DNA of 64,000 nt from positions 53,332 through 117,331 of the forward strand of contig QWDQ01000068.1 in the NCBI GenBank assembly GCA_003868215.1, given 5' to 3'. The notes beneath the pieces were generated by a model. The model saw only the letters and a program-made list of their open reading frames with translations. It did no database searches and was not told the origin of the DNA. Position numbers and translations under genes: made by a program. This document shows, piece by piece, positions 3,719 to 53,354 of the stretch; position 1 is the first letter of the stretch, and every line of letters starts with the position of its first letter. The stretch comes from Pseudophaeomoniella oleicola. Its lineage: Eukaryota; Ascomycota; Eurotiomycetes; Phaeomoniellales; Phaeomoniellaceae.

Positions 3719-6700
3719 CAAGCGCCACAACCCCTGACTAGTCCAGGCCTACTAACGGGTCGACGCCTCCTCCGGGGCTCCATTTCCCTGGAGTTAGTGG
3801 CCAGCCCAACGTGGCCCGCCAATGTGGATGAACTGCCTGACGATCACAGATGCAAGGAGCAAGGAGATGAAAGGAAAATAAAAAGGAGCAGGAGCCTACA
3901 ATCACAAACAAGACCGATGCGGCAGAGACGTTAACCGTTGACCCAACGAGCAGATCAACAATCAAAGTTATCACGATTCCGAGCAACCTACATTACTGCA
4001 TATCAAATGGCGCACTTCTCTCACGCATAATGCACACAAGCGCTGAATCTCGGGTTTGATCATCATTTGTCCAAACACCACCTACAGTAAGTACGGTGTG
4101 CCAGGTTCCGTCCGATAAGCAATGTGACAGGACTGCAGTAGATGTAACAGTTTTGCTTGGTTGCCTGCATATCTCCATGTCGATTGCCGGTAACTGTTTC
4201 CTACAGGAACGAGATTGAATAGGGTCAACAACCCCTCCTATTGGGGACCATCGGTGGGCGGCGTCAAGCCTCATGTGATCTTCTTCCGCTCATTGACCAA
4301 GGCAGTCTTGATAGTTGTCTCAATTTCCGATCCAACGCAATCTGATCGAACTTTTGCGTGTCCTGTATCGTCATGCTCACGGTGATGATCTGAGAAACCT
4401 GATTTGCAAACCCGTTGCGGTTGCTTAATTGTGTGCGATATAGCTCCGCCTCCTTCACTATCTCAGCTTCCCCCGAGATTGCAAAAAGCCATGTCGGTCC
4501 CCGCAGCGGCTGACAGCAATCTACGATCTCGCCATGGCTTACGACCGAGCTTTCTTATCTGCCTTGGTTGCTTGAGCAGATGGACAATGTTCTCAAGCAC
4601 GATGTTACTGTACGATAGTCTACCTCTGTTGCCCTATCAATGTCTCTCTTACAGGAGTTCGGTTCTATCTCAGTAACTATTTGCTACAAAAGGTTCTGAT
4701 AAACAGCAGTCAAGGTACACGAGTTCGTCTCAAGTAGACCAACCCCGTCTAATGACGAGACTAATATCGTATCGAAAATCTGCTCCTGTCTGCTACAGAT
4801 ATTATTATTGCTAATTTCCCAAATTGAGACGGCACAGAAATTGATGCTTCATCTATTTCCCAGGATTTGCGACGTAATACTGTAGTACGACCAACAACCA
4901 AGCGAGGTGACGGGTGCTCCCGTGAACCGGTAAACGCCACTGACTGAAAGCGCGTCTGTCTCGCGTTTAAGTCGTGTTTGATGGTATCGACTATATTGCG
5001 ACATCAATAATATTCCGACCATGCTAATATATCACAGTTTACGGTAATGAAGTGTGATGAGCTCACTTCGTTGACTCGGTATTGGTGGTCTCAATGCTTC
5101 ATTCGATGATCGAGAAACTCGTATCGTCATGCATGAGAATTTTCAACAACGTTTCCAGGTTCCCTGCGTCGCTCGCCACGAGGTGCCAACGTATCTCAGG
5201 ATAGCACGATTCTGATCTGCAGGGATCTCTGCCTGCCTTTTGAATTCATCGCTTCGAGTTGTTGTCATGAGACAACCCATTTCACTCTCGCTGTCCTTTA
5301 CTACAGGATATGGACAATTGTCTGACCGTGCTTCTACCGCCTTCGTTTCACATCAAAAGGGAATGATAGCATCTAAGCCCGCTAGCAATTGCCACATTGC
5401 ACTGTGCGGGAGGTATATTGCTATGTCGACTCCCCGGTCGGGTGCAGTGGAAAGTATCTCGTTCTTGCTATGTCTCCGTGTGGGCTGCCTTCTCCCATCT
5501 CAAGCTTTGTGCTTTGCGTACCGTGTGCATTCTCTGTGTGTCTTCCAAGGCCCCAGGCAGGGTCCATGTAGGGTTCTCCAGATATAGCGTCTTTGACATG
5601 GTGCAACTGTCGCTCTCTCCCTTTTGCATTCAATATGAAACCACGACCAGGCTGTTCTGGCAGTTCTGAGGTTGCAGATTCAAAGCTTGAACAGGGGAAC
5701 TATCGCGACAACATCGAGTCCAATCCCTTGGCAGCATTGCTACAATCGATCGCCTCCCACGCTCTCACCAGCTCGTATATCGATCCTGTGTCTTGGTAGT
5801 GTGTTGCCTTGGCAGTGGAGGAAACGCTGAAATGCATAGGATCGGCATCATAACGTGCCATCCGTTCAGTCACCCCTCAGTTGACGAGAACCTAGTGTCT
5901 TTGCCAAAAGATTTAGGTAACACTCGTCGTGTTCTCTTGCTTCTCTTTGCTCTTTCAGCCTCGCTATTTGCACGTTGAAATGGACTTTTTGATTTCCTTG
6001 GGCTTCTGCATTCCTGCTGCTCATTTAATCAAGCATCCGGCGGGTAGATGCCCTCAACTTTCGTATAGTGAACCTTCATTGGGAGAAATATCCCAAAAAG
6101 GGTCTCAGAAGTGTCTTTGTTAGCCAAAGCAAAACATACAGTGCTTCATCGAGGACATGAAATTCGGTAAGATCGAAGCCTACCGAGTACTGGGGACTTC
6201 GAGCAGAGTAGCTCTCGAGCTTGCGAAGCCGTCTTCCAAGATTGAGCCATCGGCACTTCCTAAAGTCCACTCGTCCATACGTCGTATGTGGCCACATCTC
6301 AGATACTACCCGCTGCTGCAGTACCACGGTATGACATCGTTCCGCGTGACCTGTACAGCTATGATAGCCACATGCGATTCGAGAAGCAACCAACTGGAAC
6401 AACCGAAGCGCGCCGGAAGAAAGCGAGAATCAAGACTCGAAGGACTACACACCAATCCATTATCATGAAATAGTGGATGGATGAACCAAGGAGTGGACTC
6501 GACTGGGATTTTAGGATGTGCGAGATAGATCGATGAAGGAAGAGCTTGTTCTCTTTGTCTGTCTACCCATTGATATATAATGCGTGTATTCGGAATACTC
6601 GGAACAATATGGTCCTCGATCCGGACTTCGAACGCGATAATATGCTTTGAAAGGAAGCTTACATGCCACTACGGATATACCTTCTCTATCCTTCGTTGAG

Positions 6701-42002: not shown

Positions 42003-44611
42003 TCATTTGGACGGTGGCAAGGACCTTCTTGTCCTTCTTCGTGGTCGTGGCGGTCTGGTTCCGGTATGCAGCTTCGATATAGACTTACGTATCACCTGTT
42101 CCTCGTGCTTCAAATGCTGCCCACCGCGGCCAGGACCGAAAGATGACGTTCCTGTATTCCCTTTGAAGCTGTTCGTCATATAAGCCGGTCTCGTTGGTAA
42201 CAGGTTAGTGCCGAGACTGTCTGGAAGCGGCTCGTTATCGCTGGAAGATATAAATGGGATGGAGGGACCGGCGAAAGAGAGAAGACCGTTGAGATCGTAG
42301 GATACCCCGTTTGGTATTGATACCAAGGGGACCGAAGAGGTTATGGGTATCGATGTGGCTCCGGTCGTGGCATAACCAGTAGAGTCTTGGACGCAGTATG
42401 ACGGAGTTGTCCAGATTGCGTCAGAAGCGTACTGCCACAAATTGGTGAAGTTGTTGAAGGTATCGGGGATCAAGAAGATCCTGCAGTCAGCAGCTTCGTA
42501 CTGCATCAACAAAGGAGTCTGGTCATCTCCTTGAAGGACCTGTGCTCGAAGACTGACTCCACCGGAATTGATAAAGATGCTTTGGTCATTTCGATTTGGA
42601 ACATCAGCTGAAGAGTTTTGGATTGCGACAGTGTTGTTAATATCATCATCTAGTTCCGAAAAGTCGTAGTAGCGAGCACCACGACTGCCGCTCGGGGTTT
42701 GCATGGGTCCATAGTTTGGTCGTCCACCGGTTACGACGTTCTTGACTCCAGCATCGTGGCGCATCATTTCCATGAATAGAGAACACGCGGACGAGCATAG
42801 GGCGTCAGACAGCTATCATAACGCATATAGTTAGCACACTGATGGAGACATGGGTATTCGAAAACACGTACAATCACAATGTCGCTTGGCGCGAAAGGAT
42901 TGGTAGGGGCCTTTTGAAACAGTGCTTCCGGAGGGTCTTCGTCACCCAATGCAGCATAGTCAAATATATAGCTCGTTGTGTTGAGTCGCTCTGCGAGAGT
43001 CACACTGGCAGCATTTGGGTTTGGTCCAAAGAATTCTGCCCATGAAGTAAAATTCCGACCGGTAGCTGCATTCAGCCTGGACGTAGCAGTCCACTCGTCT
43101 GAGACGGCAACCACATAATTGTCGTCAGCCGGGGTGAGGCTGTCGTAATATGCTGTGATGGCTTCGCCCAATGTATCGGCAAGAGGATGTGCGCGCATCA
43201 CACTTCCAGCGAAAGGCTCTATTGCAGGGAAGAATTGTTTGAAAGTGTTATATGCCAGGATGAGATCTCCACCTGCGTTTTGCTGGAGATCAACAAGAAC
43301 TTTTTGTAGACCATTAGCTTTGCTCTGGGTCAGGAAATTCTGTACAGTGTCTGAGAAGCTCTGAATGTCGGCTCCATCAGCGTAGAAGGTTGGGATGCTG
43401 AGAACGGCCAAAGAGATATCAGGGAAAAAGTATCCTGTAACGAAGCCTGTTGTTCCAAGATTGTCCTGATAGACGTCGGCATTTTCAGGATATGCATCTG
43501 TGTAGTAGCTCAGAGATGTCACCGGCGTATCATCCATAGTAGTGGTAGATGCGTCGTCATCTACCGTTGTATCATTTGGATTATACGAGGCTGGATAAAA
43601 TCCAAGGACGAAGAAATTGTAGTAATCCCCTCCTGTTTCCAGAGGGCCGGTCCCGCCATCGTTGTAGTATACGGCCAGCCACTCGTCATCCAAGACCGAG
43701 CCATTCTCAAATGTGTATGAGAATTGGTCACCAGGATAGAATGTCGCAGCGCCATCCCAAACGCTAGTTTGCTGAAGGACATCAAGAACAGGGCTATCCA
43801 TGAGCGTATTCCAGTCAGCATGAGGCTCGAGCGTACCGAGTGAGTTCAAAGCTGCAAAATGTGAAAGATATTCGATCGCATCGGTGCCATTGATTTTCGA
43901 GATCGCAGATGGCTGCCAGCTGTCTTGGGCTCCCTTTGATTGGTTCAAATATAGATCATCTAAAGCAATCAGTAGGCATTCGATTTGCAGCGAATCTAGC
44001 GTTTCTCACAAGTAAGGTAGACTTTTGGTAAAGCGACTCCATCCAAAGAAATTGACGTCAATCCCCATTGACTACCAAAAGAGAATGAAGATAGCAACCC
44101 GGCGTCAAGGTTCACATGGGCATCATTGGCGGAATATAAGAGTCTCTGGACATCAGCTTCAAACTCGTATTCTCCTTTGTAACCGCCATTATCGATAGTA
44201 TCTTGGATTCTCTGCAGACCAGCGACCAGATCCACCGCTGGCTTTTGGTAACCTGGCGGTGGACTCTTGAGATAATCGAGCGTACTTTGAAATTGCAGTG
44301 TGTCGTTCCAATACTTGATGAACCTAGTCGCCACGGCTGAAACGAATGGTACCGTGGCCCAACAGTTATACACATCGACGGCGTTAACAATCGAATCTGA
44401 ACATCTTTTAGCTGTTTGGCGCGGATTTCTCTGACTTGGGGGAAATACCAGCCTCTGCAGCCCTTATAAGATCGCCACATGCTGTAGGTACAGGTGCACT
44501 AATTGCTTCTGTTGACGTCGCGCTGACAGATGAATCCTGAGGCCAGGGAATGGCGAAAGCCGAGGCAAAGAGTATGAAATGAACTAGGATCGACGTAAAC
44601 AGAGCCATCAT
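42003..44611 (-). CDS. Secreted S41 family serine peptidase (CPAF/ustP-like)
   Basis: Exons 44611-44449, 44396-44010, 43959-42872 and 42812-42003; introns of 52, 50 and 59 bp. All junctions restore frame and family sequence, giving 815 residues. The signal peptide ends near residue 22. The N-terminal region (about 55-190) has the PVDLVAGLQRI-like helical block and DAHVNLDAGLL seen in fungal S41 proteins, followed by a PDZ-like part with ISKINGTDAIEYL. LSDALCSSACSLFMEMM (547-563), created by joining exons 3 and 4, holds the catalytic Ser (553 or 554). GVKNVVTGGRPNYGPMQ follows. It is probably an extracellular or vacuolar endopeptidase; related proteins (ustP, phomP) sit in fungal RiPP clusters, but no precursor or UstY gene is visible here. 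The C-terminus is a basic Pro/Arg tail, and a strong GTAAGT near 42088 suggests an unseen last intron and a different end. Confidence 0.88.
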
Positions 44612-45660: not shown

Positions 45661-48600
45661 ATGGACCCTCTGAGCGTAACAGCTGCTATCGCTGGGTTTA
45701 TCGGGCTGGCAGCGCAGGCCGCAACATTCTTCCAGGATTGGCGGCATGGGCCGAAAGAGCGTCTCATATTCAGTGCCACCTTTCGAGAGCTGGAAGTCAC
45801 TCTCCAGAGTATAAAGGATCGTGCCGACGAGGTAGAAAATGTAAAGAGAGCGATCTCAAAAGGCCGTTTCGGCCAACCTCAAGACTCTGGGAAGATCTAC
45901 CAGCGCTATGACAAGGCTATGGCACCTGGAGGTCACTTCGTCACCCTGAACGACAAATTAACCGGGTTTCTCGGAGCTGAACGGTCTCTAGAGGCTTCCA
46001 AACTGGCTCGCTTTCTCAACAGACTAACATGGACAACGCAGAAGGACGATCTCAAATTCAAGCTCGATCACGTCCTCACTTCTGCAAGGTTATTGAGAGA
46101 CTATCTCTACGATGACGAGGCCCAAATTGCACAAGCTACATATGTGGGGGTAGTAGAGGTAGGAAGGCGGCAGGCAGAGGCGGAGGTCCTGGAAATTCTA
46201 GACTGGTTATGTCCAGCTCAGGAGACCTTACAAATGCGAACCTCGGATATCTATTCATTCACACGCAACCCTGACCCATTCATCCAGTCTGAAATCTATA
46301 AACAATGGGTCTCGGACGCAGATACATCTCACTGGCAGCTCAGTTGCTTTGGCAAACCCGGCTCCGGCAAGGTAAGTTTCAATCTTGAAATCATATGTGG
46401 ACCATAAAGTGACCATTATCATTCCTAGAGCTATCGTGCCCGTACTGTTATCTCCGATCTTCTAGCCAAATTCCCAAGTCAAAATACCCTTATCCTTTCT
46501 ATCATGTTTCACCACAAGAACGAGACGCGCCAGTCCCTACAAGCAGTCTTTTGCAGCTTGCTGAGACAGCTGATATCGCAGACAATCCCTATCGAGATTC
46601 CTCCTACTATCCGTGAGCTTTGGAACCAGAGAAGGCTCAGCGGTCATAATACTCTCGCAGAGCAGGAGGCGAGAGACCATCTGGTTGAAGAACTAAGGAG
46701 GCGGCCTTTAAAGTTCGTCGTCGTGGATGCCCTTGATGAAGCAGCCGGATGTCTCAATTCCATCAAAGCAGGACTCCGAAGTCTCCGCACAGAGACAGGT
46801 CTATGCATATTCAGTACAGACCGTCTAGATCCTCGAAAACTTCAGGCATCTATTTTTTGTGACGGTTGCGGAGTCGACACAGATCATCTATATTGGCAGT
46901 GCGTTCACTGTAGTGGAGTCTTAGGTGGTAACTATGCCCTGTGCAAGAAGTGCTACGTAGGCAAACAGAAGAGTTGTCCCGAAGGTACTCATAAAATGCA
47001 GATACCTGCGAAGATTAATGTCCAAGCCTCTGCAGCTCCCCAGCAGATCGAGACATTCGTGAGAAGGTTGCTGGAACAAGAATTAGCATTGGACGAAGCG
47101 GGAGATGAAGATCCAACACTGTACTCCGGAGATACGCCGTCTCTAGTTTATGTCAAGAACGATCTCGGCGACAAGTGGAATTCAATTCCCCAACTGGTCA
47201 GTCAAGCGGCAGGCGATAGCTTTCTTGTGGCGGGTCTGATCGTCGCTCGTCTGAAGCGACAACCTACGGCTTATGCAGCCCGCAAACTTCTAGAAGAAGG
47301 CGTGACGGCGAAAGTCTACGATAAATCGGGTAACCAATATGATTACATGCTCAAGGTCCAGTACGATGACATGCTCTCCTTGTGTCTCAAGAAAACAGAC
47401 AAAGATGCTGCCAAGGTCGCTTACGACCATTTGGCTGCTGTAGCGTGTGCTCAAGAGGTCTTGTCCTTTGAGCAATTATCACATGCTGTATCTGTTGAAC
47501 AGGGAGACAAGAATAAGGATAACTTCGAGGTTCGCTGTTGTAGGAAAGAGATTGTACGGAAGAATACAGATGGTCTGATTTCGATTGGTGAATTCGGTGA
47601 TCCCAGAATGTTAGCGGTATCCTTCTTTCATCGAACTTTGTCGACCTATCTGGAGCAACACAGCAAAGAATGGTTTCCAGATGCTCACCAAAAGATGTTT
47701 GACGCATGCATAGCTTATCTCCAGCTTGAGATCTTTATGAAACCGTACACGTCCTGGAAAGACCTTGATCAATGTCTACTGGACTATCCTTTCGCGTCTT
47801 ATGCTGCTTGCTACTGGGGATTCCATCTGGGTCAGACATCCTCTCGTGAAGACAATTTCCTGCCTCTATTAGAGTTGTTCGAATCTCCAGATCGCAAAGC
47901 GTGTATTATGCAGATCGCGTGGTATGCACGCCCACACGCAGCCGTAGCATGGGATGTCATGAACGGTGTCAGTCTTCTGCATATGTGTGCATTCAACGGG
48001 ATCACTGATCTCTGTGCGCTTCTTATACAAAATGGAATGGATCCGGATACAGCTGAGGAGACTTACGGCCAGACTGCACTTCATTACGCTTGTCGAAGAG
48101 GCAACATTGAAGTTATCAGGCTGCTTCTAGAGGTTGGTGCCAATGCTAATATATCAAGTGTTAAAGGCCGGACGGCACTCATCGAAACGATCGAACATGA
48201 TCAGAGACAGGTAGTCGACGTGATGTTGGAATATCCGTCAGTAGACGTCAATGCACGCGGAGGTCTCCCCGACGAAACGACGCCCCTCGTATATGCTTCC
48301 GAACACGGCAATACGAATTTCGTTGCAATATTGGTCAAGGATCCCAATATTCTAATCAATCAAGGAGACCACAGAGACCGCACAGCTTTATTTTGGGCTG
48401 TAAGATCTCTCAGTGTAGAATGTGTACAGCTTATACTAGATCATCCAGAGCTCGACATCACGCTGAAGGATAGAAATGGAGAGACAGCACTGGACTATAT
48501 GGCTCACGTTGATTACCACTACGAGCCTGATGCGGACTTTGCAGAGCATATCACAAAACTGCTTATAGCGCACAGGCATTGCCCTCCCTTGGGAGACGAT

Positions 48601-50067
48601 GCTCTGCAGTATCTGATTGAAGATCAGAAAACATCTCTTCTGGAGATTTTACTACCGCTGCACTCGTATGTGAACTGGAGAGACGTCCATGGCCGCACGT
48701 TGCTACATATCGCAGCATCAACAGGGGAGGGACAGATGATTCAAACCGTCTACACTGTCCTTTCAACGGCATCAGGCTTCAACGTAGATGCTACCGACAA
48801 GTTCGGTTCCACAGCACTCCATGTCGCTTGTCGCAGTATATCTGTGGATCGCGGGGCAGGTGCAGTATATCTCTTGCGACATGGAGCAGACGCCACTAGG
48901 CAAGATGCAAAGGGGTTATCACCCCTTGATATTGCCTACGAAAACGCAGACGACGATTTGATCAATGACATTTCAGATATCTTCCGTTCGCATCTTCCGG
49001 TAGGGTTCGGCGGTACCCAGGGAAAACATCGAGCACAATGTATCGAAAGTCTTGTACATCATGGAGATATATGTGCACTACAATTGGCAATTGATCGAGC
49101 AGACGCTCCTTTGCAGCTTGATGCAGACCCTTACACCGGGGCGACGGCATTACAGATGGCTGTAAGTTGGCGAGGGCCTACAAGACCGGATCTCTTGAAG
49201 ATACTTCTCCCAAAGAGTACACCGTATTTGGATGCTGTCAACTTGGGTGGCCGGACTTGCATGCATTCAGCAGCCGAGCGTGGGTGTACAGAGAGTCTCA
49301 GGCTTCTTATCGATGCTGGGGCAGAGATGGATATCAAGGACAACTGGGGTGAAACGCCGTTCATTCACGCACAAAGGGACAAGTACCATCTCGGCTATGG
49401 TGCCGCATTCCTACCGATCAATTCGGGCGCAAAGCTACCAGGACCAGAGAAGATACATAAAGACCTGCTTCATTGTGCTATTGATCAAGTGGAGGTCACG
49501 GTGGTCAAAGGGCTCATAGAAGCGGGTGTGGATCTTTACCATCGCAAAGATGGCGTCGGCCCGACAGCACTTGAACTTGCGAAAGATCGACGTCGAATCA
49601 ATATCAATGCATCAAGGAACGATATGATGAACAGTCGGCAATGGAGAGATTTTGCAGGCGCAGAGTCCTTCGACAACGCCGCGCTCCAAACACCAAAGGT
49701 CAAAGCGCTCGACGAGATCATCGATCATCTTCAGGAAACCCAGAAGCACGCCGTCGAACCAAGCGTTCTTCGTCGTCGCGTCGATGATCTATCACCCCTG
49801 ATTCGCAAATTGCGAAGCGCGAGGCACAAAACTCGTGACATTGCTCATGACTCAACGACATTAACAGTGGTAGAAAAACACACTCAAGCAATTCCCCCGA
49901 ACGGTTCCATAGATTTTGCTGTACAGATTCCTCCTCAAACGAGAGGCGACACAATCGTTACAATCGACCTAGGCAACCAAGGAGGCATTGCCATCGCAGT
50001 TGCCATTGCGCTGGTATCTATGATGTGGCTCTGGCTACGATACCAAGAGAGTCTGATGGCTCGATGA
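45661..50067 (+). CDS. NACHT-ankyrin NLR-like protein with internal ZZ zinc finger
   Basis: Exons 45661-46371 and 46429-50067; the 57 bp intron (GTAAGT...CCTAG) falls exactly inside the P-loop. The product has 1449 residues. An N-terminal all-helical fungal STAND effector-type domain (1-165; MDPLSVTAAIAGFIGLA start) precedes the NACHT. P-loop: FGKPGSGKS (230-238); Walker B: FVVVDALDEA (333-342); sensor-like STDR near 366-369. Between the sensor and the following helical part lies a ZZ-type zinc finger (about 381-426) with three CxxC pairs plus later Cys and His. Ankyrin repeats run from about 750 to 1285 (for example GQTALHYACRRGNIEVIRLL). A hydrophobic segment at about 1421-1441 is followed by a short basic end, so it may be membrane-anchored. 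Such proteins control non-self recognition or cell death in fungi; the ligand here is unknown. A second NACHT gene follows. Confidence 0.92.
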
Positions 50068-50546
50068 CTCAGGTACCTAGTAGTACTGGTTATCAGAGTA
50101 TGTAGTAGTATGTTTAAGATAGATCAATAAAATCTCTATTAATCTAATCAAATAATATATTAAAATGATGAGAATAAATTTATTAAGAATATCAAGAAGC
50201 AGTAGTTTAAGAGCGGATGGGATACTGGGATTAGTACTCGTAAAATCTGATTATGTAATGAGGCTAAAACCAAGCTCGCTCTCAGAAGTGGCTACAGTAA
50301 GCAGCACCGAGTAAGCTTGAACCCCGCCATAAGCTGCTATGAGCCAGCATGATTGACCTTGACGTAGTGTGTATTCATATGGCCTTGATGGTACCTGGTT
50401 TTGGGTCCCTCTATCCTGGCAAATGAAAATCGTTCCTGAAATCAGGCTCAAGAGCTTGCTGGAATCTCCTCTTCTATCACCTTTGCGAGCTTGACCAGAT
50501 TTTCTACAAACCTCAAGTCTATATCTGAATCGAACCTCTTGATAGG
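50068..50546. other. 479 bp spacer between the two NLR genes
   Basis: An AT-rich start (50080-50200) could contain the first gene's poly(A) signals (AATAAA-like near 50127-50132), and the rest is the likely promoter of the second gene. No coding frame is visible on the plus strand. Confidence 0.7.
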
Positions 50547-53354
50547 ATGGCGTAAGTGTTACTTCTTCAATGATCATAATGAGCGGAGCTAACAATTTTC
50601 AAGTAAAGATCTTACCAGCACATCGTTGTGGGAAGACGCCGTGAAGGCATACACGGAATCTCTCACTCCCAAGCAACAGTTGACGATCAAAGCGCCGACC
50701 ACTGTTGAACAGTGTCTCCAGATTCTAGAGGAGAATCGAAGCCGCAAGAAGGCTTTTTCACGAATTCTGGAGTCGTTCAGATTCGTCATAGAGCCCCTAG
50801 CCAGAATGAGCGGGGCAATCGACGTTGCCGTTCAGACGTGCTCAGGTATCGCCTCCCCAATATGGGGACCACTTCGACTCGCAATCACAGTTCGTCAGTC
50901 AGGCCAAAGTCTCGAGTCTTGCTTACAGATTGCTGCAGGTTGCGTGTGAGCATTTCAGAACACTTGAGCGCCTGACCTTAATGATCGATAAGATTGCTTC
51001 GTCTGTTCGTCGATATCAGGATTTCGAACTCCTGTTCGCGTCGCATGATGATATAAGAGTTGCTGTGGGCGCATTGTACTCCGATCTTGTTGATTTTTGT
51101 GTGCGAATCGTTCGTCTCCACACGAAGTCGTTTCGTCTACCATTCGTGTCTTTCGACACTCAGTTCGGAGCAATTTCTGAGTCCATCGATCTCCATAGCG
51201 CAGAGATCGATCGTACTGCTCTTGCAGCTCATATGAAAGAGGCTAAAGAAGCAAGAGAGAGGACTGCAGCCGATAAGGAAGGTATGGTCGTGGTGTCTCT
51301 CGAGCTACAATACTTTGAATGCTCACAGCCACTTTATAGAACAGGATTTACATGAATTGTTGCGATGGCTGTCTCCGTCACTGGTCGAAGACGATCTGCA
51401 CAACCATTTCAGCGACTACATGGACACATCCCTCGACTGGCTTGTTGCATCAAAGCAGTTCAAAGACTGGATAGGCCCGTCGTCGGGCAACGCACTCCAG
51501 ATCACAGGCCGCCCGGGGTCTGGAAAGAGCACAGCAGCCTCTTTTATTGTCCAGCATCTTTCGAAAGCGAAGCTCCCGGTCGTATACTTCTTCTTTGATG
51601 ACAGCGATGCGGAAAAGAAAGAGGAAAGGCATCTCTACCGCACGATCTTAGCTCAGCTTCTCCAACTTGATCACACTATCGCTGACGCCTTGATGAAGGT
51701 TTACCGAAAAAGCGGCAGAATCTCTGCAGAGTTATACGAATTAAGAAGCCTTTGCTGGCAAGCACTAACATCAAGGCAAGACCGACCAATCTACGTTATC
51801 CTAGATGCCATTGACGAGGGGGATCGCCCCTGGTTCACAAGAGAAATGCAGGATGATATAAATGCAGGCAAGGTAAAGTTCTTGTTCACTCAGAGGGAGA
51901 GCCAGGATGTGTTCTATGCCTTCCATGATGATGATTATACCGTACCTATTACGCTCGAGCTCACGATGGACCGTCAAATCTTGGCCCCGTACATCAAGAA
52001 ATACACCCAGCAAAGAGTGCAAGCACTCCAAGCCATTTTTGACAAGGACCTTCAATCACAAGTAATTGACAAGGTGTCGGACGGCGCGGATGGTATTTGG
52101 CTCTTTGCCTCCCTCATGCTCAACGAGGTCGAAAAAGCGCCGAGTAAACAGAGGGTAATCCAGCGCCTAACTTCCGTTCCCTCCGGGATCTCCGGTCTTT
52201 ACCATGATATCTTAAGGTCACGCGAGCGAGACACGACACAGGATCAACAAGAGTTTGCCTCACACCTCTTCCTTTGGCTGGATATCAGGGATTATCTGCC
52301 CGGATTTCTTGCTGACGATTTCGATCGTCTTCCTTATCATATGCTGCAATTGATATTTCGCTTCGTGAACGGGGGTGACGAGGTCTTCAACGCGGCAAAA
52401 CTTGCAAAAGAACTTGGTGCGCCACTAATCGAGGTTCAAGGCTTGTCTTCGAGCTATGAGGTCAACTTTGTTCATCGGTCGGCGTACCAGTACCTCTCTA
52501 ATACCTCGAAGCTGCCCATCGCCAATCTCCCGGTCGTCCTGAGGCCTCAAAGACTCAAGCCACTCTACAGAGCCACTGTCGCAGTCTGGTATTTCACCGA
52601 ATGTCCAGATTCTCTAGACATGCTGGAGGCTTTGCAAAGTGCAGCAGAGACCGAACGCTTCTTTGGCCGAGATACAATTGGGCCATATCTCGAGATGCAG
52701 TATGCGCTGGTGGATGCTTTGAAGATGAGAGAGTTGCCGAAAGATATGTCAAGCGAGGAAATTGCGCAGGTTCAAGCATTCTCAGAACGGCTTATGGGTT
52801 TTCTTCAATCAGACAAGGTGCTCCGCTGGGTAGAGATCGCCACAATCGTCAATTACTCTGGAAATCATGCGCAACTGCTTGATAATGTTCTTATGGGATT
52901 GAAAGATTCAGACCAAGGGGTAGCCCACCAGCAAAGGCAGAACCAGTTTCTCGCCCAGATAAATAGAACAGAGAGCAGACCACGGTCTGCGTATGACGAC
53001 TTCATGGCCCTTCGTGACTGCATTGAATCTTTCTGCTCGGAGTGGGCTTACATAATTCAAGAAACAACGTCGTGGCAAATGTACGATCAGACCAGACTGG
53101 CTTTCCCAAAGCCAGATGGCTTGGACATGACTGGGACATTAGCAAAGAGAATGACAATAGGACAGAAATGGCGAAAGTTGCTCCCGCCTGATGACGAGTA
53201 TATAGGGGTACCTCAAGTGTGGATTGACACTCGCTCTGACGAGCAAAGGTTTGAGAAGCCGGAAAGCAGCCTCTTTCAGTGTCCAAGTTGCTCAAAAGTC
53301 GTTGACGGGAGAAGAAATTGGAAACGCCATCGCATGCGAATGTGTACTAGGTAG
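50547..53354 (+). CDS. DUF7708-NACHT NLR-like protein with C-terminal C2HC finger
   Basis: Exons 50547-50551, 50604-50889, 50939-51281 and 51340-53354; introns of 52, 49 and 58 bp, 882 residues. The first exon is only ATG-GC, followed by GTAAGT. That intron has GCTAAC and ends in AAG, and splicing yields Met-Ala-Lys-Asp in the right frame for what follows. The N-terminal 1-200 region, with SPIWGPLRLAIT joined to VACEHFRTL across intron 2, looks like the fungal DUF7708 helical domain. The NACHT has P-loop GRPGSGKS (268-275), Walker B YVILDAIDE (363-371) and a sensor-like FTQRES. A winged-helix and helical region follows (FVHRSAYQYL near 590). No ankyrin, WD40 or TPR repeats are seen; instead the last 25 residues hold CxxC-x12-H-x4-C (859-880). 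It probably works in non-self recognition or signalling, perhaps with the NLR upstream. Confidence 0.88.

What the first reader, a model, noticed from the sequence alone, without database searches (positions are those of the whole stretch)
45661..53354. Tandem pair of NACHT NLR-like genes with complementary architectures
Two NACHT genes lie head to tail 479 bp apart. The first has a helical effector-type N-terminus, NACHT with internal ZZ finger, ankyrin repeats and a C-terminal hydrophobic segment. The second has a DUF7708-like N-terminus, NACHT and a C2HC finger but no repeat sensor. The N-termini and C-termini differ, so this is not a simple duplication. A sensor-like repeat protein next to a repeat-less NACHT recalls paired sensor/helper NLRs of plants. 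Fungal NLRs are known for incompatibility and cell death, but the idea that this pair acts together is inference.
Basis: partly seen in the sequence, partly recalled or inferred. Interest (0 to 1): 0.8.

Follow-up and report, generated by a model that had tools for sequence, protein, structure and literature searches.

The report
Two neighbouring, unrelated fungal NLR genes
Two apparently intact but only distantly related fungal immune-receptor-type (NLR) genes sit side by side, the kind of small mixed cluster already described in fungi; nothing found here shows that they work as a pair.

Summary
Two intact-looking fungal NLR-type genes lie head to tail, 479 bp apart. Gene 1 (1449 aa): unassigned N-terminus, NPHP3-type NACHT, ZZ-like finger (below Pfam's cut-off), ankyrins, hydrophobic tail. 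Gene 2 (882 aa): DUF7708 N-terminus, NPHP3-type NACHT, unassigned region, weak terminal C2HC finger.

They are not tandem duplicates: their NACHT domains are 19.6% identical, against a mean of 22.1% over 27 NACHTs of this genome.

A sensor/helper pair is not supported. Both keep P-loop, Walker B and winged-helix motifs. Five other DUF7708-type NACHT loci (one identified by eye) have no NB-positive neighbour within 40 kb in view. NLR loci cluster generally here (12 of 34), and 34 randomly placed genes give some pair within 5 kb in 19% of runs. A published Sordariales survey found 272 clusters in 26 of 37 genomes, 225 of two genes, only 16 of paralogues, and head-to-head pairs rare (PMC12258605).

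Conservation of the adjacency, the decisive test, could not be run: no other fungal genome was held. No structure was predicted. New member of a known kind.

The parts
45661..50067 (+). Gene 1: NLR-type protein, 1449 aa, exons 45661-46371 and 46429-50067
   Evidence: Splice model and translation; Pfam
45661..46278 (+). Gene 1 N-terminal region (aa 1-206), starts MDPLSV; HeLo-like by indirect resemblance only
   Evidence: No Pfam match over aa 1-206; not reported by PF17111 at E up to 0.1. BLASTP E 3e-6 (single comparison, 20% identity) to the N-terminus of paralogue C3_22, which itself matches PF17111 at E 0.0036, under cut-off
46279..46752 (+). Gene 1 NPHP3_N/NACHT nucleotide-binding domain (aa 207-345), with a 57-nt intron at 46372-46428 inside the P-loop
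   Evidence: PF24883 E 8e-19; P-loop aa 231-238 and Walker B aa 333-342
46858..46998 (+). ZZ-like zinc finger just after the STDR (sensor-1-like) motif of the NACHT (aa 381-427)
   Evidence: Motif scan; ZZ E 0.01, under cut-off, in the excised piece; similar insert at the same place in C3_22
47947..49587 (+). Gene 1 ankyrin repeat region (about aa 744-1290, limits by eye)
   Evidence: Ank_2 E 1.8e-54, six stretches; highest internal identity 39% over 33 aa
49981..50037 (+). C-terminal hydrophobic segment (aa 1422-1440), nine residues before the end: possible tail anchor
   Evidence: Hydropathy 2.15 over 19 residues; the last 171 aa have no second match in the genome at E up to 1
50547..53354 (+). 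Gene 2: NLR-type protein, 882 aa, exons 50547-50551, 50604-50889, 50939-51281, 51340-53354
   Evidence: Splice model and translation; Pfam
50797..51241 (+). DUF7708 domain (aa 67-198), overlapping a weak Goodbye match (aa 11-124); includes the 49-nt intron 50890-50938
   Evidence: PF24809 E 3.5e-7, over cut-off; PF17109 E 1.6e-4, under cut-off
51432..51890 (+). Gene 2 NPHP3_N/NACHT domain (aa 243-395)
   Evidence: PF24883 E 1.5e-29, PF05729 E 1.8e-6; P-loop aa 268-275, Walker B aa 363-372
53280..53345 (+). C-terminal C2HC finger of gene 2 (aa 859-880)
   Evidence: Motif scan; zf-C2H2_4 E 0.0063, under cut-off, in the excised last 50 aa

Best explanation
These are two separate members of this fungus's NLR repertoire that lie next to each other in a small mixed cluster. 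Each probably works alone as a signalling switch. Gene 1: the ankyrin repeats (possibly with the ZZ-like finger) sense a ligand, the NACHT exchanges nucleotide and oligomerises, and the N-terminal region signals; the hydrophobic tail may hold the protein at a membrane. Gene 2: the unassigned C-terminal region and terminal finger sense, the NACHT oligomerises, and the DUF7708/Goodbye-like region signals. Shown here: reading frames, domains, motifs, lack of close kinship, general NLR clustering in this genome. Inferred from the NLR family: sensing, oligomerisation, and an output such as cell death. No link between the two genes is shown.
For: P-loop, Walker B and winged-helix HxT/S...YL motifs present in both. 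NACHT identity between the two 19.6%, mean 22.1% over 27 rows; no sister grouping in a poorly resolved tree. 34 NB-positive loci (27 NPHP3_N, 7 NB-ARC), of which 12 fall in 5 clusters at under 40 kb, against 3.3 genes expected at random (P 0.002); 2 of the 4 other clusters mix NACHT with NB-ARC loci. Published survey: 602 (26%) of 2349 NLRs of 37 genomes clustered, 225 of 272 clusters with two genes, 16 of 272 of paralogous copies (PMC12258605 section 10). Gene 1's best paralogue C3_22 has a related N-terminus, a similar finger at the same place and ankyrins, with no second NB-positive locus on its 25-kb contig.
Against: No ligand, expression or phenotype data. The pair is the closest of all NLR neighbours in the census (NB to NB 5.0 kb; next 7.3 kb). 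The C-termini do differ, and two- and three-gene functional units are known in fungal cell death (NLR with effector, protease with gasdermin; PMC12881547 passages), so coupling is not excluded. Gene 1's N-terminal region is unassigned, so its autonomy is assumed.
Confidence: 0.78

Rival explanations
1. The two genes form a working NLR pair: the possibly membrane-tethered ankyrin protein senses and the repeat-less NACHT protein executes, or the reverse.
For: Adjacent within 479 bp on one strand; unlike C-termini; closest NLR neighbours in the census. Paired NLRs exist in plants and mammals (abstract starts in the listing).
Against: Head to tail; both have intact NB motifs. Five other DUF7708-type NACHT loci have no NB-positive neighbour within 40 kb in view: four (one of them, C36_8, under cut-off) and C60_88 by eye; C36_8 and C35_33 lie within 40 kb of a contig end. 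34 random genes give a pair within 5 kb in 19% of runs. The Sordariales survey found 13 head-to-head pairs among 225 two-gene clusters and concluded against convergence on the plant organisation; head-to-tail pairs were not assessed for function there in the sections I read.
Confidence: 0.06
2. The genes are held together by shared chromatin or by selection for co-inheritance as an allorecognition or defence block, without acting on each other.
For: NLR loci cluster more than random here. One paper gives inheritance as a unit as the most likely reason why NLR and effector genes cluster (PMC9815663 passage).
Against: No population or expression data. Of 10 stop-to-stop frames scanned near the pair, 4 matched Pfam and none of those is an effector or HET family; 6 had no match.
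Confidence: 0.12
3. One or both NACHT proteins serve a non-immune role, such as secretion or membrane trafficking; a tail anchor in gene 1 would fit that.
For: A NACHT protein of Penicillium herquei is reported as required for unconventional secretion (PMC13311144: title and abstract start, passages). Hydrophobic tail.
Against: That protein is listed with no predicted transmembrane helix, and its kinship with gene 1 was not tested.
Confidence: 0.1

Closest known systems
Fungal NACHT NLRs with ankyrin repeats (Dyrka 2014, PMC4986451; Bonometti 2025, PMC12258605)
   Same: Gene 1: N-terminal region, NACHT, C-terminal ankyrins; T-NACHT/ankyrin is among the commonest combinations in Sordariales. 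ZZ fingers are reported in 17 Sordariales NLRs.
   Different: Here the ZZ-like finger lies directly behind the NACHT, before the ankyrins; whether the survey counts such cases as C-terminal I cannot tell. 'Transmembrane' does not occur in the main texts of PMC4986451 and PMC9815663, so a hydrophobic tail is not described there under that word. The ankyrins are diverged (at most 39% over 33 aa). Whether this NACHT is T- or N-type was not tested.
Goodbye-like NACHT NLRs (PMC9815663, PMC12258605)
   Same: Gene 2: DUF7708 with a weak Goodbye match, NPHP3-type NACHT; C2H2 fingers are reported in 34 of 57 finger-bearing Sordariales NLRs.
   Different: The Goodbye match is under cut-off; the finger is weak and single; the region between NACHT and finger is unassigned.
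Two-gene NLR clusters of Sordariales (PMC12258605)
   Same: Two neighbouring, non-paralogous NLRs; 225 of 272 clusters have two genes and 16 of 272 are paralogous copies.
   Different: 479 bp apart; the spacing distribution in the survey was not seen. This fungus is not known to be a Sordariales member.
Plant sensor/helper NLR pairs (RGA5/RGA4 and RRS1/RPS4, recalled)
   Same: Adjacent NLRs with unlike C-termini.
   Different: Head to tail here; no division of labour visible in the motifs; no functional evidence.
nwd2/het-S and PNT1/HELLP units of Podospora (PMC12881547 passages)
   Same: Adjacent fungal genes of NLR and cell-death type.
   Different: Those join an NLR to an effector protein through an amyloid motif; here both genes are NLRs, and amyloid motifs were not searched for.

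Membership tests
Fungal NLR (STAND NACHT) | NACHT-type nucleotide-binding domain with P-loop and Walker B | tested here: met
   Both genes: PF24883 over cut-off; motifs located. PF05729 itself is over cut-off only for gene 2
Fungal NLR (STAND NACHT) | C-terminal superstructure-forming repeats | tested here: inconclusive
   Gene 1: ankyrins found. Gene 2: no repeat family at E up to 0.5; its last 270 aa matched only weak C2H2 profiles
Fungal NLR (STAND NACHT) | Recognised N-terminal effector domain | tested here: inconclusive
   Gene 2: DUF7708 over cut-off, Goodbye under it. Gene 1: no Pfam match over aa 1-206, none by PF17111 in the genome search; only kinship to a paralogue that weakly matches PF17111
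Tandem duplicate pair | The two NACHT domains are each other's closest relatives | tested here: not met
   19.6% identity, mean 22.1% over 27 rows; 11 or more other rows are closer to each of them
Fungal NLR cluster (PMC12258605 definition) | Consecutive NLRs under 40 kb and fewer than eight other genes apart | tested here: met
   479 bp apart; the gap is overlapped only by a 115-aa minus-strand stop-to-stop frame, no sign of a gene
Plant-type sensor/helper NLR pair | Head-to-head orientation (common, not universal) | tested here: not met
   Both on the + strand, head to tail
Plant-type sensor/helper NLR pair | Adjacency conserved between species | not testable with these tools
   No other fungal genomes held; two viral-contig scans found no relatives
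Plant-type sensor/helper NLR pair | Functional dependence of one on the other | not testable with these tools
   Needs experiments
ZZ zinc finger (PF00569) | Score over the curated cut-off | tested here: not met
   16.1 bits against 21.4 in the excised piece; the C78 locus is not among the 9 matches of the genome search

The most novel reading that the evidence does not exclude
A fungal NLR-NLR pair of unlike members, in which a tail-anchored ankyrin NLR at a membrane activates or restrains a soluble DUF7708/Goodbye-type NLR: sensor/helper logic evolved independently in fungi.
Probability: 0.05. Interest if true: 0.7.

Novelty: new member of a known kind. Interest (0 to 1): 0.2.

Why it matters
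If the pair worked as a unit, fungi would share sensor/helper NLR logic with plants, which the one survey of fungal NLR organisation seen here argues against at the level of gene arrangement. As it stands, the locus adds one more mixed two-gene NLR cluster, plus an ankyrin NLR with an internal ZZ-like finger and a possible membrane tail that would be simple to test.

Tried and rejected
Tandem duplication: rejected on NACHT identity and tree. Shared bidirectional promoter: rejected on orientation. RIP-damaged or repeat-derived locus: TA/AT is 0.64 and 0.57 in genes 1 and 2 (window 0.73), and (CA+TG)/(AC+GT) is 1.31 and 1.34 (window 1.18), not the direction RIP would give (direction recalled); no direct repeats of 25 nt or more (seed 12) between 44000 and 56000. 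Relatives in viral contigs: none by two scans. Relatives in solved structures by sequence: none with E up to 1 for two queries, one match at E 0.61 for the third. NCBIfam gave only generic ankyrin and NTPase matches far below cut-offs.

The fingers as unique traits: the regex scan found the ZZ-like motif only in gene 1, but it covered mostly 3.1- to 5.3-kb pieces and missed C3_22, whose first cysteine pair is complete only if a short intron, which I read by eye in the sequence printed, is spliced. Six of the eight Cys/His positions of C3_22 are in the open frame as it stands.

Rows dropped or merged: the 30 rows became 28 loci (two rows each for C17 and C51); C1:24240 was dropped because it reads as an ordinary AAA ATPase, leaving 27. 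C47_848 and C24_286 were kept although they lack a P-loop by eye. The random-placement tests treat the genome as one 26.1-Mb line, ignore contig ends and gene density, and apply only the 40-kb rule, not the gene-number rule. The census is six-frame and a lower bound. Tree support is poor (3 of 24 inner branches starred; the bootstrap had not settled).
Full report
What is there. The window is the last 64 kb of the 117-kb contig C78 of a 26.1-Mb genome in 112 contigs. Gene structure and families look like those of a filamentous fungus (inference); I did not identify the species. Two genes occupy 45661-53354 on the + strand. Gene 1 has two exons and 1449 aa; gene 2 has four exons and 882 aa; 479 bp separate them. 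Both frames run through to a stop under these models. The second intron of gene 2 has an atypical donor and was chosen because it continues the DUF7708 region without a gap.

Domains. Gene 1: no Pfam match over aa 1-206, NPHP3_N 8e-19, ankyrins 1.8e-54, a ZZ-like set of Cys/His at aa 381-427 just after the STDR motif of the NACHT (ZZ E 0.01, under cut-off) and a hydrophobic segment at aa 1422-1440, nine residues before the end. Gene 2: DUF7708 3.5e-7, Goodbye 1.6e-4 (under cut-off), NPHP3_N 1.5e-29, NACHT 1.8e-6, then a region without Pfam match and a terminal C2HC finger (0.0063 in the last 50 aa, under cut-off). P-loop, Walker B and a winged-helix HxT/S...YL motif are present in both (the last motif was compared by eye with paralogues, and its name as winged-helix motif is recalled).

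Kinship. Among 27 NPHP3-type NACHT loci of the genome the two domains are 19.6% identical, slightly below the mean of 22.1%, and do not group, in a tree of poor support. Gene 1's best paralogue is C3_22 (E 1e-13 over aa 1-347). It shares the MDPxS start (BLASTP 3e-6 for the N-termini alone, 20% identity), a similar finger at the same place (ZZ_ADA2 0.0046, under cut-off) and ankyrins. By reading, it has no hydrophobic tail and other intron places. Its N-terminus matches PF17111 at 0.0036, under cut-off; gene 1 itself is not reported by PF17111 at E up to 0.1. I recall that this family was formerly called Helo_like_N, which no call confirms. So 'HeLo-like' for gene 1 is a lead, not a result. 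Gene 2 has no close paralogue: its best match is C36_8 at 1.2e-17 and 20% identity. DUF7708 occurs beside a NACHT in C35, C17, C51 and C36_8 (C36_8 under cut-off) and, by reading only, in C60_88. The Goodbye profile reports only gene 2 in this genome, under cut-off.

Is the adjacency special? With 7 NB-ARC loci there are 34 NB-positive loci. Twelve lie in five clusters at under 40 kb, against a random mean of 3.3 genes (P 0.002) and 1.6 clusters (P 0.012). Clustering is thus a property of the repertoire here. The C78 pair is the tightest, but 34 genes placed at random give some pair within 5 kb in 19% of runs (27 genes: 12%). None of the five other DUF7708-type NACHT loci has an NB-positive neighbour within 40 kb in view, though C36_8 and C35_33 lie within 40 kb of a contig end. 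C3_22 lies on a 25-kb contig with no second NB-positive locus, so its neighbourhood is only partly visible. Of 10 stop-to-stop frames scanned around the pair, four matched Pfam: a DUF885 protein, two frames of a CPAF-like protein (the S41 peptidase match itself is under cut-off) and a sugar transporter; six had no match.

Literature. Bonometti et al. 2025 (PMC12258605; abstract and sections 10, 13, 14 and 15 read) describe 4613 NLRs of 82 Sordariales taxa. In the 37 genomes with long scaffolds, 602 (26%) of 2349 NLRs lay in 272 clusters in 26 genomes; 164 clusters shared one NB type; 16 consisted of paralogous copies; 225 had two genes, 13 of these head to head. [quoted passage not shown] Zinc fingers occurred in 57 NLRs, 17 of them ZZ and 34 C2H2, 52 in C-terminal position. 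[quoted passage not shown] if gene 1's N-terminus is HeLo-like, both genes would carry related effector types, which would favour independent receptors. Searches of the open-access library for sensor/helper or paired NLRs in fungi (4 of 4 and 15 of 57 papers listed) showed no functional fungal NLR-NLR pair in titles or abstract starts; in two reviews 'helper' and 'NLR pair' (PMC12881547) and 'paired' (PMC10197012) do not occur, and 'helper' occurs in PMC10197012 only in the reference list. Searches for a tail-anchored or transmembrane fungal NLR (5 of 5 and 12 of 254 listed) showed none in the listings. Papers outside that library were not seen.

How it most likely works. Each protein is best read as an autonomous STAND switch: C-terminal sensing, nucleotide-driven oligomerisation by the NACHT, N-terminal signalling (family knowledge, not shown here). 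The ankyrins of gene 1 are diverged (at most 39% identity over 33 aa), unlike the highly conserved, length-variable repeats described for a fraction of fungal NLRs (PMC4986451 passages), so gene 1 does not carry that mark of fast-changing recognition. The tail segment could anchor gene 1 in a membrane; this is a hydropathy reading only. Output as cell death, incompatibility or something else is inference.

Limits. Structure prediction was busy at all seven attempts on gene 1's first exon. Gene models are without transcript support. The NLR census is six-frame and a lower bound.

Verdict. It is an ordinary mixed NLR cluster, with a mildly unusual first gene.

Noticed in passing
L063 (G000:C60:82001-91900), minus strand: A NACHT gene with a DUF7708-like N-terminus (by reading) whose ankyrin units are nearly alike, the pattern linked in print to fast-changing recognition repeats; a better candidate for a variable receptor than the pair.
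   Followed up: partly
G000:C63:43486-44118 and G000:C63:50765-51274: An NB-ARC locus and a NACHT locus 7.3 kb apart on the same strand: a second close mixed NLR neighbourhood in this genome.
   Followed up: no
G000:C63:50765, C63:122740, C63:140245 and C53:141800: Four NACHT loci form one of the three starred clades of the tree (100/99), three of them within about 90 kb: a local paralogue expansion, unlike the C78 pair.
   Followed up: partly
L062 (G000:C17:229900-239800), 4273-6081 +: The later exon of a DUF7708-type NACHT gene holds Cys/His stretches that look finger-like by eye; Pfam gave no zinc-finger match there, only a weak ankyrin one.
   Followed up: partly
G000:C51:77659-78762 and G000:C36:36346-36579: DUF7708/NACHT pieces with stops inside the match: decayed relatives, or introns read through.
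   Followed up: no
46372-46428: The intron of gene 1 falls inside the P-loop. NACHT matches of C51, C21_351, C1_1038, C17 and C60_88 also begin at about profile positions 30-40, so an intron near the P-loop may recur in loci that form no supported group in the tree.
   Followed up: partly
42767-44463 minus strand: A gene with a CPAF-like PDZ domain and a sub-threshold S41 peptidase match lies upstream of gene 1 in the opposite direction.
   Followed up: no
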